A DNA stretch of 34,077 nucleotides, taken from the NCBI GenBank assembly GCA_013393545.1, contig JABXHG010000578.1, positions 1-34,077 of the forward strand, in the 5' to 3' direction. Below are positions 14,715-25,113 of this stretch, piece by piece (position 1 is the first letter of the stretch; each line of letters opens with the position of its first letter). The position numbers and the translations under genes are program-made. The notes under the pieces are model-generated. The model was given only the letters and a program-made list of their open reading frames with translations. It made no database searches and had not been told where the DNA came from. The DNA comes from Alteromonadaceae bacterium (GTDB lineage Bacteria > Pseudomonadota > Gammaproteobacteria > Pseudomonadales > Oleiphilaceae).

Positions 14715-15200
14715 ATGAGCGATACCCTGGATATCCTGGAAAACATCACCTACCAGGAACTGAACGAAGGCGACTCCGCCACCTTTACCCGCACGCTTAC
14801 CGAAGACGAACTGGTGTTGTTCGCTGCCGTGTCCGGCGATGTGAACCCGGTGCATCTGGATTCCGAGTTTGCCGCTGAATCCATGTTCAAGGAGCGCATT
14901 GCCCACGGCATGTGGAGTGGTTCGCTGATTTCCGCCGCGCTGGCCACCGTCATGCCAGGCCCCGGCACTATCTATCTTGAACAGAGCCTGGCATTCAAAC
15001 GGCCGGTAAAACTGGACGATACGCTTACAGTCACGCTCACCGTTGACCGCAAGGAACGTCGCAATCGGGTGGTTTTCCAGTGTGAAGTGCGCAACCAGAA
15101 TGATGAAAAAGTCGTTACCGGCGAAGCAAAAGTGGTCGCCCCTACCGAGAAGATTTCCCTGCGCAAACCCAATTTGCCGAAGATCACCATCGAAAACTGA
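14715..15200 (+). CDS. MaoC-type (R)-specific enoyl-CoA hydratase / dehydratase
   Basis: A hot-dog-fold hydratase acting on enoyl-CoA or 3-hydroxyacyl-thioesters. PhaJ proteins of this type divert beta-oxidation intermediates to (R)-3-hydroxyacyl-CoA. The 161-residue protein carries the hydratase-2 motif: an Asp and His in VSGDVNPVHLD (near residues 43-49), then IAHGMWSGSLISA (near 65-77). EQSLAFKRPVKLDDTLTV in the second half is typical of MaoC domains. The N-terminal ENITYQELNEGDSATF is a usual lead-in. The ATG at 14715 follows GGAG at six bases. It diverges from fadD, which supports a lipid role. Whether it feeds PHA, fatty acid synthesis or wax-ester metabolism cannot be told from sequence alone. 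No terminator is seen directly after the stop; the next one is at 15378-15408. Confidence 0.85.
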   Translation: MSDTLDILENITYQELNEGDSATFTRTLTEDELVLFAAVSGDVNPVHLDSEFAAESMFKERIAHGMWSGSLISAALATVMPGPGTIYLEQSLAFKRPVKLDDTLTVTLTVDRKERRNRVVFQCEVRNQNDEKVVTGEAKVVAPTEKISLRKPNLPKITIEN

Positions 15201-15244
15201 ACGCTGGTGTCAGCTAACTTAACACTTTGTCGCGCGGCCTGATC

Positions 15245-15259
15245 GAAAGACGATCTTTC
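15245..15259. promoter_or_regulatory. inverted repeat, possible enhancer-binding-protein site
   Basis: GAAAGA (15245-15250) and TCTTTC (15254-15259) form a perfect inverted repeat with a three-base centre. The centre lies about 85 bases before the start site predicted from the sigma-54 elements at 15311-15325. That is the normal distance for an upstream activator site. The assignment depends on the promoter call. Confidence 0.4.
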
Positions 15260-15310
15260 TGCACTACGCCCAGCCTACTTACCATTGTTTTTAAAGGAAA
15301 ATTTGCAAGC

Positions 15311-15325
15311 TGGCCTTCCACTTGC
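15311..15325 (+). promoter_or_regulatory. sigma-54 (RpoN) -24/-12 promoter
   Basis: TGGC (15311-15314) and TTGC (15322-15325) are separated by exactly seven bases, giving the invariant GG-N10-GC spacing of RpoN promoters. The preceding base is C, matching the YTGGC consensus. The middle CACG part of the consensus is not conserved. An AT-rich block at 15287-15303 upstream could bend or bind IHF. The predicted start is near 15337. The only thing downstream on this strand is the structured region ending at 15408. Confidence 0.55.
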
Positions 15326-15336
15326 GAAAGAAAGGC

Positions 15337-15408
15337 TGGCGGGGAGCTTCCGGCCCCCGCCGGACACGCCGAGCCTTGCCGATGCCTTCACCCGCATCGG
15401 CTTTTTTT
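15337..15408 (+). ncRNA. candidate sigma-54-dependent small RNA, about 72 nt
   Basis: Between the sigma-54 promoter and a strong terminator there is no reading frame worth naming. The DNA encodes two hairpins: GGCGGGG / CCCCGCC (about 15338-15344 and 15355-15361), then the terminator stem at 15378-15401 followed by seven T. A single-stranded linker of about 16 bases joins them. A short, well-terminated RNA from its own promoter fits a regulatory sRNA; GlmY/GlmZ and CrcZ are known sigma-54-dependent sRNAs. I recognise no known family in the sequence. Alternatively it is the trailing end of the maoC transcript. Confidence 0.45.
15378..15408 (+). terminator. rho-independent terminator
   Basis: GCCGATGC (15378-15385) pairs perfectly with GCATCGGC (15394-15401) around an eight-base loop and is followed by seven T (15402-15408). 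It works only on the plus strand; read on the other strand there is no T-run. It lies 178 bases after the maoC stop, far for a simple gene terminator, and ends the candidate sRNA. Confidence 0.88.
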
Positions 15409-15418
15409 CGGCTCGAGA

Positions 15419-16597
15419 TTACTTGCTCAACTCGTGCATGGCGGCTTCCAGTCCCTCGTTGGTCAGCGGATACATCTGGTCGTTGACCAGCTGACGCGTG
15501 ATCGCCAGTGAACCACGCGGGTTCCAGAAGGACTCTGGCAACGGATTGAGCCACACCACTTTATCAAAATGATCGGTAATGCGCTGGAACCAGGTGGCAC
15601 CGGCTTCCTCGTTCCAGTGTTCGATGGAGCCACCGGGGTGGGTAATTTCATAGGGCGCCATGGTGGCATCACCCACGAAAATCACCTTGTAGTCCAGGCC
15701 GTAGGTATGAAGGATATCCCGGGTATCCACGGTTTCATTCATTCGCCGCAGATTGTGCTGCCACACGCTTTCATAGATGAAATTGTGGAAGTAGAAGTAC
15801 TCCATGTGCTTGAACTCCAGCCGTGCGGCGGAGAACAGCTCTTCACACACCTGAACGTGCGGGTCCATGGACCCGCCCACATCGAAAAAGATCAGCACCT
15901 TGGCTGCGTTATGGCGCTCAGGCACCATTTTCAGGTCAAGGTAGCCGGCATTTCTGGCAGTGGAGCGAATAGTGTCATCCAGATCCAGCTGGTCGGCGGC
16001 CCCTTCCCGGGCAAACTGGCGCAAACGGCGTAATGCCAGCTTGATATTGCGAACCCCCAGCGTCACGCTGTCGTCCAGATCCCGAAACTCACGCTTCTCC
16101 CACACTTTCACCGCCCGACCCTGGCGACCGCCATCCTGGCCAATCCGGTAGCCCTCGGGGTTATAGCCATAAGCACCGAAAGGCGAGGTACCGCCAGTGC
16201 CGATCCACTTGTTGCCGCCGGCATGCCGCTCTTTCTGCTCTTTCAGCCGCTCCTGGAAGGTTTTGATCAACTCTTCCAGGCCGCCGAGGGAGTCGATCTT
16301 CGCTTTTTCATCGGCGCTCAGATGCTTTTCGAACTCTTTGCGTAACCACTCATCCGGGATGAGCGTTTCCAGCAGTCCATCCAGATCCTCGATGCCCTGG
16401 AAATACACCTGAAAGGCACGGTCGAATTTGTCGAAGTGGCGCTCATCCTTGACCAGACACAGCCGGGCCAGATAGTAAAATTCCTGGACATCGGCAAATG
16501 CCAGACGTTTTTGCAGGGCCTCCAGCAAATCCAGGAACTCCCGCAGACTCGCCGGCACGCCCACACGGCGCACTTCCAGAAAAAAGTCGATCAGCAT
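15419..16597 (-). CDS. VWA domain-containing CoxE-like protein
   Basis: A cytoplasmic von Willebrand A protein of the CoxE-like type, usually paired with a MoxR ATPase in chaperone-like modules that assemble or insert cofactors or act on envelope complexes. It has 392 residues. The N-terminal helical part starts LIDFFLEVRRVGVPASLREF. A basic Gly-rich stretch lies at about 115-150, and the VWA domain at about 230-370. The metal-site loop reads FFDVGGSMDPH near 237-247, so the usual DxSxS is DxGxS here. The gene starts 21 bases after the moxR stop, the last gene of the long leftward array. No signal peptide is seen. The exact client is unknown. Confidence 0.85.
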   Translation of the reverse strand: MLIDFFLEVRRVGVPASLREFLDLLEALQKRLAFADVQEFYYLARLCLVKDERHFDKFDRAFQVYFQGIEDLDGLLETLIPDEWLRKEFEKHLSADEKAKIDSLGGLEELIKTFQERLKEQKERHAGGNKWIGTGGTSPFGAYGYNPEGYRIGQDGGRQGRAVKVWEKREFRDLDDSVTLGVRNIKLALRRLRQFAREGAADQLDLDDTIRSTARNAGYLDLKMVPERHNAAKVLIFFDVGGSMDPHVQVCEELFSAARLEFKHMEYFYFHNFIYESVWQHNLRRMNETVDTRDILHTYGLDYKVIFVGDATMAPYEITHPGGSIEHWNEEAGATWFQRITDHFDKVVWLNPLPESFWNPRGSLAITRQLVNDQMYPLTNEGLEAAMHELSK

Positions 16598-25003: not shown

Positions 25004-25113
25004 GGTGACCCCACCAGCAATCCTCCGGCACACAAATCCACCGCTGCGGCTGCTCCCTTCCGGGCCTGACCGGGTTCACGGTTTCATGTTGCGGAGGCAC
25101 CAATGGGGCCACC
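25004..25113 (-). ncRNA. ffs: 4.5S RNA (signal recognition particle RNA)
   Basis: Scaffold of the bacterial SRP, which binds Ffh and targets membrane proteins cotranslationally. On the minus strand the conserved apical domain is complete: GGTCAGGCCCGGAAGGGAGCAGCC with its GGAA tetraloop and the asymmetric and symmetric internal loops (about 25045-25072). The ends pair: GGTGGCCCCA at the 5' side (25113-25104) and TGGGGTCACC at the 3' side (25013-25004), with one G-U pair. That sets the length at about 110 nt, like E. coli 4.5S RNA (114). The GTGTGCCGGAGG / CCTCCGCAAC part of the long stem is also present. No strong U-tract follows the 3' end. Confidence 0.93.

What the first reader, a model, noticed from the sequence alone, without database searches (positions are those of the whole stretch)
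15245..15408. Candidate sigma-54-dependent small RNA between maoC and the CoxE-like gene
A 218-base gap holds, in order: an inverted repeat (GAAAGA-N3-TCTTTC), an AT-rich block, a TGGC-N7-TTGC promoter with exact RpoN spacing, a GC-rich hairpin, and a perfect eight-base terminator with seven T. The predicted transcript of about 72 nt contains no reading frame. Known sigma-54-driven sRNAs (GlmY, CrcZ) are rare and important; this one resembles none I can name. A chance match to the eight core bases in a gap this size is under 1%.
Basis: partly seen in the sequence, partly recalled or inferred. Interest (0 to 1): 0.7.

Follow-up and report, generated by a model that had tools for sequence, protein, structure and literature searches.

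The report
Sigma-54-driven small RNA of Marinobacter
A short non-coding RNA gene with its own sigma-54 switch, lying in the gap after one gene, turns out to be kept with little change in most Marinobacter genomes searched, so it is very probably a real regulatory RNA, although what it regulates and what turns it on are not yet known.

Summary
In the window alone the promoter match is not beyond chance (1 exact match in 34 kb, 2.56 expected). Relatives settle it. A covariance model of the predicted RNA hits 110 of 124 genomes of the genus (E<=0.1; I judge 106 intact). Of 128 loci read, 123 have it convergent with the CoxE-like gene, 12 also have maoC upstream. The -24/-12 promoter was not in the model, yet of 55 held-out loci 21 carry it exactly and 20 with one mismatch, against 0.3% and 3.3% of control stretches. 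New here: a TGTC-N9-GACA palindrome about 102 bases upstream (93 of 115 loci with <=1 mismatch; control 4 of 575) and, in part of the loci, an IHF-like site at about -32. That is the layout of an activator-dependent sigma-54 promoter. Stems covary, the possible reading frame is broken in several loci, Rfam has no match. The GAAAGA/TCTTTC repeat is absent from the closest relative. Most likely a 72-80 nt trans-acting base-pairing RNA with a nearly invariant linker as seed. Activator and targets are unknown; several activators were tested and not supported.

The parts
15208..15224 (+). Upstream activator (enhancer) palindrome TGTCAGCTAACTTAACA, 103 bases before the promoter; 1 mismatch to TGTC-N9-GACA
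   Evidence: Similar spacing in relatives: 93 of 115 loci with <=1 mismatch in -112..-88, control 4 of 575; top dyad of the upstream regions, 38 of 90 versus at most 7 for any dyad in 20 shuffles
15280..15292 (+). Place where part of the relatives carry an IHF-like site (YAANNNNTTGATW); the window itself has only a poor match (3 mismatches)
   Evidence: 15.7% exact and 43.5% with <=1 mismatch of 115 loci, against 0.4% and 8.4% in resampled sequence; 40 of the 50 such matches start at -32 to -34
15311..15325 (+). Sigma-54 -24/-12 promoter TGGCCTTCCACTTGC
   Evidence: exact in 70 of 73 sequences found by their terminator; exact in 21 and one mismatch in 20 of 55 held-out loci
15337..15408 (+). 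Predicted sRNA, about 72 nt (start inferred as 12 bases after the -12 GC)
   Evidence: Fold; covariance models R1 and R2; window scores 72.5 bits; no Rfam match above gathering score over it
15338..15361 (+). 5' hairpin; sequence varies, pairing largely kept
   Evidence: in A2 8 of the 9 pairs of its two helices have changes on both sides
15362..15377 (+). Linker, in most relatives UUGAUAUGCCGAGCUUU, nearly invariant in its core and mostly unpaired: candidate seed
   Evidence: alignment; mean unpaired probability 0.53-0.96 from five bases before CCGAGC to the end of the core, lower (0.31-0.64) just upstream, 115 loci
15378..15408 (+). Intrinsic terminator: 8-pair stem, 8-base loop, seven T; stem letters nearly fixed in the genus
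15419..16597 (-). CoxE-like VWA protein gene, convergent neighbour
   Evidence: PF05762; convergent neighbour in 123 of 128 loci
14715..15200 (+). MaoC-like dehydratase gene, upstream neighbour only in a minority of relatives
   Evidence: PF01575; 12 of 128 loci, the window included

Best explanation
It is a free-standing small RNA gene. An activator protein of the bacterial enhancer-binding type binds the TGTC-N9-GACA palindrome about 102 bases upstream, IHF bends the DNA between (at least in many relatives), and the looped activator opens a sigma-54 polymerase at TGGC-N7-TTGC. The transcript of 72-80 nt begins with a GC-rich 5' hairpin, carries an exposed, nearly invariant linker (UUGAUAUGCCGAGCUUU), and ends in a strong intrinsic terminator with a long U tail. 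It most likely acts in trans by base pairing of the linker with several mRNAs, probably with Hfq. Shown here by computation: the conserved unit, its promoter, its enhancer palindrome and its pairing. Inferred: transcription, start site, activator class, IHF, Hfq and trans-pairing. Unknown: the activator, the signal and the targets.
For: RNA model hits in 110 of 124 genus genomes and 125 of 163 family genomes, mostly one per genome. Promoter exact in 70 of 73; in held-out loci 21 exact and 20 with one mismatch of 55, control 0.27% and 3.3% of 9875 stretches. Enhancer with <=1 mismatch at similar distance in 93 of 115, control 4 of 575. IHF-like site in part of the loci. Covariation: 94 cells changed on both sides versus 22.3 shuffled; 94.4% paired versus 33-51% when slid. 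Coding unlikely: frame broken by indels in several loci, SD-like motif before the linker ATG in 1 of 128 loci examined, window has ACG. 12 of 15 coxE-bearing genomes without a good hit lack RNA and promoter together.
Against: No expression data. The enhancer motif was found and counted on the same loci, and 13 of 128 loci were dropped before that count. Sequences are related, so counts are not independent. 14 of 55 held-out places have two or more promoter mismatches; most are weak, remnant or distant, but L202 is a good RNA without a recognisable promoter. No recurrent target found. No activator that I could compare matches the enhancer. The upstream part of the linker is only partly unpaired, and the window's own linker differs from the consensus. 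A2 was fitted to the structure it supports.
Confidence: 0.85

Rival explanations
1. The hairpin is only the transcription terminator of maoC (or a terminator between maoC and coxE), and the promoter match is chance.
For: In the window the terminator stem begins 177 bases after maoC on the same strand; the promoter match alone is not significant.
Against: maoC is seen upstream in only 12 of 128 loci. The element persists elsewhere with promoter and enhancer at similar spacing. Linker and stem letters are more conserved than a terminator needs.
Confidence: 0.04
2. A real sigma-54 RNA whose main job is local: antisense to the 3' end of the convergent coxE message, or transcription interference with it.
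For: Convergent with coxE in 123 of 128 loci, often ending only a few bases from its stop codon.
Against: L095 carries RNA and promoter without coxE in the fetched stretch; L234 too, but without a promoter match. In L002 the RNA lies about 174 bases from the coxE stop. Conservation includes an exposed linker, not only the bases nearest coxE.
Confidence: 0.12
3. A short peptide gene (MPSFADALNRIGFF in the commonest frame).
For: An ATG stands in the linker in 109 loci and the commonest first 14 residues recur in 38.
Against: Other loci read on in shifted frames, the window and a few others have ACG, and an SD-like motif precedes it in 1 of 128 loci examined. Stems covary as RNA.
Confidence: 0.02
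4. A protein-binding RNA (decoy or sponge) rather than a base-pairing one; the GCCGA repeated in linker and terminator stem would be the binding letters.
For: Terminator stem letters hardly vary although pairing alone would allow change (7 of 8 pairs never vary in A1; 4 of 8 in A2).
Against: No known protein-binding motif recognised; distant relatives change the stem with compensation.
Confidence: 0.12

Closest known systems
GlmY/GlmZ of enterobacteria (sigma-54, GlrR/QseF)
   Same: sRNA from a sigma-54 promoter with an upstream TGTC...GACA palindrome
   Different: GlrR site is TGTC(N)10GACA (PMC4987338, passages seen), here the spacing is N9; no Rfam match; none of the 7 G001 activators scanned reached the GlrR model cut-off (the eighth, L280, was not in that scan)
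CrcZ/CrcY of Pseudomonas (sigma-54, CbrB)
   Same: sRNA driven by sigma-54 and a two-component activator; Marinobacter has a CbrB-like protein (named from recall)
   Different: CbrB subsites are TGTTAC/GTAACA (PMC6296734, passages seen), not the palindrome here; the window transcript has no AANAANAA (CA) motif (that motif is recalled); no Rfam match
Qrr sRNAs of Vibrio (sigma-54, LuxO) and NrsZ of Pseudomonas (sigma-54, NtrC)
   Same: small RNAs activated from sigma-54 promoters (recalled)
   Different: No Rfam match; none of the 10 activators scanned reached the LuxO model cut-off; sequence and layout unlike (recall, not tested)

Membership tests
Sigma-54-dependent gene | GG-N10-GC at -24/-12 conserved across relatives | tested here: met
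Sigma-54-dependent gene | Enhancer for an activator at a distance | tested here: met
   Palindrome at similar spacing; binding itself not tested
Sigma-54-dependent gene | IHF site between enhancer and promoter (common, not universal) | tested here: inconclusive
   Enriched in relatives, 43.5% with <=1 mismatch versus 8.4%; poor in the window
Sigma-54-dependent gene | Expression lost without RpoN | not testable with these tools
   Needs an rpoN deletion
Intergenic trans-acting sRNA | Own promoter and own intrinsic terminator, no kept reading frame, conserved structure | tested here: met
Intergenic trans-acting sRNA | Conserved seed with conserved mRNA targets | tested here: inconclusive
   Seed conserved; exact 11-mer complement in 13 genomes gave no recurrent leader target
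Intergenic trans-acting sRNA | Hfq binding | not testable with these tools
   Only the U-tailed terminator suggests it
GlmY/GlmZ | TGTC-N10-GACA GlrR sites | tested here: not met
   Spacing is N9
Any Rfam 15 family (GlmY/GlmZ, CrcZ and Qrr among them, by recall) | Match to an Rfam model at its gathering score | tested here: not met
   Window and five relatives: no such match over the element; in a lax scan only gyrA, E 0.39, other strand
CrcZ/CrcY | CbrB subsites TGTTAC/GTAACA upstream | tested here: not met
   Not seen in the upstream stretch of window and L001; GTAACA copies in other loci lie in a block that persists where the RNA is lost
CrcZ/CrcY | Several Hfq/Crc-binding CA motifs (AANAANAA, recalled) | tested here: not met
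   None in the 72-nt window transcript, read directly

The most novel reading that the evidence does not exclude
A lineage-wide core regulatory RNA of Marinobacter and near relatives, switched on by an activator whose binding site (about GTGTCGA-N-TTATTTGACAC) matches none of the activators compared here: an undescribed signal-to-sRNA circuit, in which even the terminator stem is kept nearly letter by letter because it binds a partner.
Probability: 0.3. Interest if true: 0.72.

Novelty: new member of a known kind. Interest (0 to 1): 0.6.

Why it matters
Sigma-54-driven sRNAs are few, and the described ones sit at global switches (carbon, nitrogen, cell envelope, quorum; recalled). Marinobacter is common in the sea and in oil degradation (recalled). 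Four searches of an open-access library showed me no paper on a sigma-54 sRNA of this genus (listings only, one search listed 15 of 616). The finding gives an element with promoter, enhancer and seed that can be deleted and tested at once, and a clean question: which activator reads TGTC-N9-GACA.

Tried and rejected
Activators (protein names are recalled except NtrC and the PEP-CTERM regulator, which reach a model cut-off). PilR: of 13 distinct pilin genes read, 7 show by eye GTGAC..GTCAC-type repeats (such as GTGACAAA..TTTGTCAC) before a sigma-54-like promoter; only one (L320) has the RNA's palindrome, with one mismatch. Not supported. TRAP-associated DctD-like regulator: one genome without the RNA (G048) has an exact TGTC-N9-GACA 108 bases before a TAXI promoter, but of 16 TAXI promoters read 13 show TGGGTG and CACCCA repeats, one a weaker form, two neither, by eye. 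Not supported. FleQ: the fleQ genes of G001 and G003 have an N8 box (GTCATAAAATTGAC and its reverse complement) just upstream, matching the Pseudomonas motif (PMC8125075, passages seen). FleQ/FleR: of 55 sigma-54-like sites listed in about 80 kb around these genes in each of two genomes, 4 have the palindrome with <=1 mismatch in the 220 bases before, none within -112..-88, the nearest at -115. V4R-type regulator: the promoter beside its gene shows TTGATCAAA. NtrC and the CbrB-like protein were compared only through recalled or published sites. Seven activators are shared by G001 and G003. PMC6058289 (passages seen) speaks of a NifA-like TGT-N11-AGA near PilR targets, which has the same spacing as TGT-N11-ACA here; this slightly favours PilR against the pilin comparison.

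Other places with the composite of palindrome and promoter: most look like chance inside genes, and the backward control also matches in some genomes. Four with a TGTCG..TGACA-like repeat were read: before a TAXI gene (G048), a laminin-G-domain protein (G027), a metallophosphatase-like protein (G055) and an unnamed protein (G086). No common theme.

Targets: the exact complement AAGCTCGGCAT has 84 places in 13 genomes. 78 were read; the other 6 are the RNA itself. Of the 78, 6 are the RNA; of the 72 others 12 lie near a possible start, none recurring in more than two genomes. One coding match (an AMP-ligase-like protein) recurs in three genomes. Wobble or shorter seeds were not tried.

Order-level search: 20 of 390 genomes at E<=0.001; 16 were already known, 4 new ones (E 7e-5 to 8e-4) were not inspected. 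The weak hits L225-L227 are judged false (no coxE beside them). RNAalifold on the MAFFT alignment saw only the terminator stem, probably because hairpin 1 is misaligned; I then named the structure and refitted by covariance model, which leans towards that structure.

Full report
What was claimed and what is there. All are present at the stated places. On this sequence alone the promoter proves nothing: the window holds one exact TGGC-N7-TTGC where shuffles give 2.56. The question had to be settled by relatives.

Conservation. The closest relative found, a record titled Marinobacter persicus (L001, CoxE-like protein 98% identical), has promoter, linker and terminator but not the GAAAGA/TCTTTC repeat. 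L002-L007 have promoter and RNA, with no end of maoC in the roughly 330 bases shown; L008 lacks the RNA. A search for the terminator hairpin found 81 of 124 genus genomes at up to 3 mismatches. I kept matches with up to 2 mismatches, 72 loci plus the window: 70 of these 73 have an exact TGGC-N7-TTGC in the 75 bases before the stem, two have one mismatch, and one has two.

Held-out test. A covariance model (R1) was built from 65 distinct RNAs, each taken from a few bases before the predicted start, so the promoter is not in it. It found 110 of 124 genus genomes at E<=0.1 and 125 of 163 family genomes. I count 106 of the 110 as intact: G053, G085 and G095 look like remnants and G071 like a false match. 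The 55 places outside the first set were read. The best promoter match near the start was exact in 21 and had one mismatch in 20; 14 had more: the remnants L222-L224, L225-L227 (judged false), the distant or weak L234, L236-L238 and L240-L242, and L202, a good RNA without promoter. Control stretches of the same loci gave 0.27% exact and 3.3% one mismatch (9875 stretches).

Structure. On the plain alignment A1 the second pair of hairpin 1 occurs as G-C, G-U and A-U (38, 17 and 8 sequences). On the model-fitted alignment of 100 loci, 11 of 17 pairs have changes on both sides, 94 cells against 22.3 in shuffles, and 94.4% of cells pair against 33-51% when partners are slid; that alignment leans to the structure. 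The terminator stem hardly varies in A1 but changes with compensation in more distant members. The linker core AUGCCGAGCUU and the terminator are the most conserved stretches; the linker core is mostly unpaired.

Promoter anatomy. For 115 of the 128 loci (13 dropped: L202, L222-L227, L234, L236, L237, L240-L242) up to 300 bases before the promoter were searched without a prior motif. The top inverted repeat was TGTC-N9-GACA, in 38 of 90 dereplicated regions; no repeat in 20 shuffles exceeded 7. Other repeats also exceed the shuffles, the next (CTTG-N8-CAAG, 27) lying in the second block listed under things noticed in passing. Matches of the palindrome cluster at about -101 to -105 from TGGC: in the range -112 to -88, 52 exact, 41 with one mismatch and 21 with two, of 115; control stretches with <=1 mismatch 4 of 575. 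In the window it is TGTCAGCTAACTTAACA at 15208. Between it and the promoter an IHF-like site is enriched, mostly at -32 to -34: exact in 15.7% and <=1 mismatch in 43.5%, against 0.4% and 8.4% in resampled sequence. The window's own copy is poor. Activator site, IHF bend and -24/-12 promoter is the textbook layout of an activator-dependent sigma-54 gene (established knowledge).

Loss as a unit. Of 18 genus genomes without a good hit, 15 keep the CoxE-like gene. In three (L442, L444, L445) linker and terminator remain in altered form while enhancer and promoter are gone. In the other 12 the unfiltered model finds no RNA and no promoter-enhancer pair is seen; single one-mismatch sites occur in L441 (promoter-like, at the end of coxE) and in L443 and L447 (palindrome-like). 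In L443 maoC seems to end directly at coxE. Promoter and RNA thus come and go together.

Setting. The RNA converges on the CoxE-like gene in 123 of 128 loci; maoC is seen upstream in 12 of 128, the window included. The stretches reach only 1-1.5 kb upstream in most loci, so a more distant maoC would be missed. L095 carries RNA and promoter without coxE nearby. Of the 73 coxE loci L008-L080 (Pseudomonas and others) only L011 gives a match below E 0.1 (2.9e-6). The RNA thus seems a feature of Marinobacter and near kin; the order search added nothing secure.

What it is not. A peptide gene is unlikely: frames break, no SD. No Rfam family fits. Not a GlmY member by its enhancer: spacing N9, not N10. 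Not CrcZ-like in letters: no CbrB subsites seen in window or L001 and no CA motifs.

Which activator. G001 has eight sigma-54 activators at E<=1e-20, seven shared with G003. In the same genus, pilin, TAXI-TRAP, fleQ and V4R-neighbour promoters carry other repeats, so PilR, the DctD-like protein, FleQ and the V4R protein are less likely. NtrC, the CbrB-like protein and FleR remain; none has a known site like this one as far as I recall. This is open.

Targets. The 11-base complement of the seed gave no recurrent leader target in 13 genomes. Shorter or wobble pairing was not tried, so this is weak evidence.

Print. Four searches of the open-access library (listings only) showed me no paper on a sigma-54 sRNA of Marinobacter. 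Judgement: very probably a real, new sRNA family of a known kind; confidence 0.85 in the mechanism as stated, about 0.93 that it is a sigma-54-driven RNA gene.

Noticed in passing
window 25009-25105 (-): Bacterial small SRP RNA, the only Rfam match in the window at gathering score.
   Followed up: no
L248, L442, L444, L445, L449 and many loci without maoC: A second conserved block, GTAACAC..GGTAAC..AAGAACGGTATCCAGATCACCAAATG, lies upstream; in L248 beside a divergent ~180-aa gene without Pfam match. It stays where the sRNA is lost or decayed, so it likely belongs to that gene.
   Followed up: partly
L366-L381, upstream of the TAXI gene: TAXI-TRAP genes lie a few kb from a DctD-like regulator in G001 and G003; 13 of 16 promoters read show TGGGTG and CACCCA repeats, a likely activator site (by eye).
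   Followed up: partly
L318-L325, upstream of pilin genes: 7 of 13 distinct pilin genes read combine a sigma-54-like promoter with a GTGAC..GTCAC repeat, a likely PilR site (by eye).
   Followed up: partly
L008 and L450, beside the CoxE-like gene: Several copies of a repeat GATCGCGGTTGAAACCGCTCCTAC stand where others have the sRNA.
   Followed up: no
L202 (genome G110): A well-conserved RNA with no recognisable sigma-54 promoter: a natural promoter loss or a switch to another promoter.
   Followed up: no
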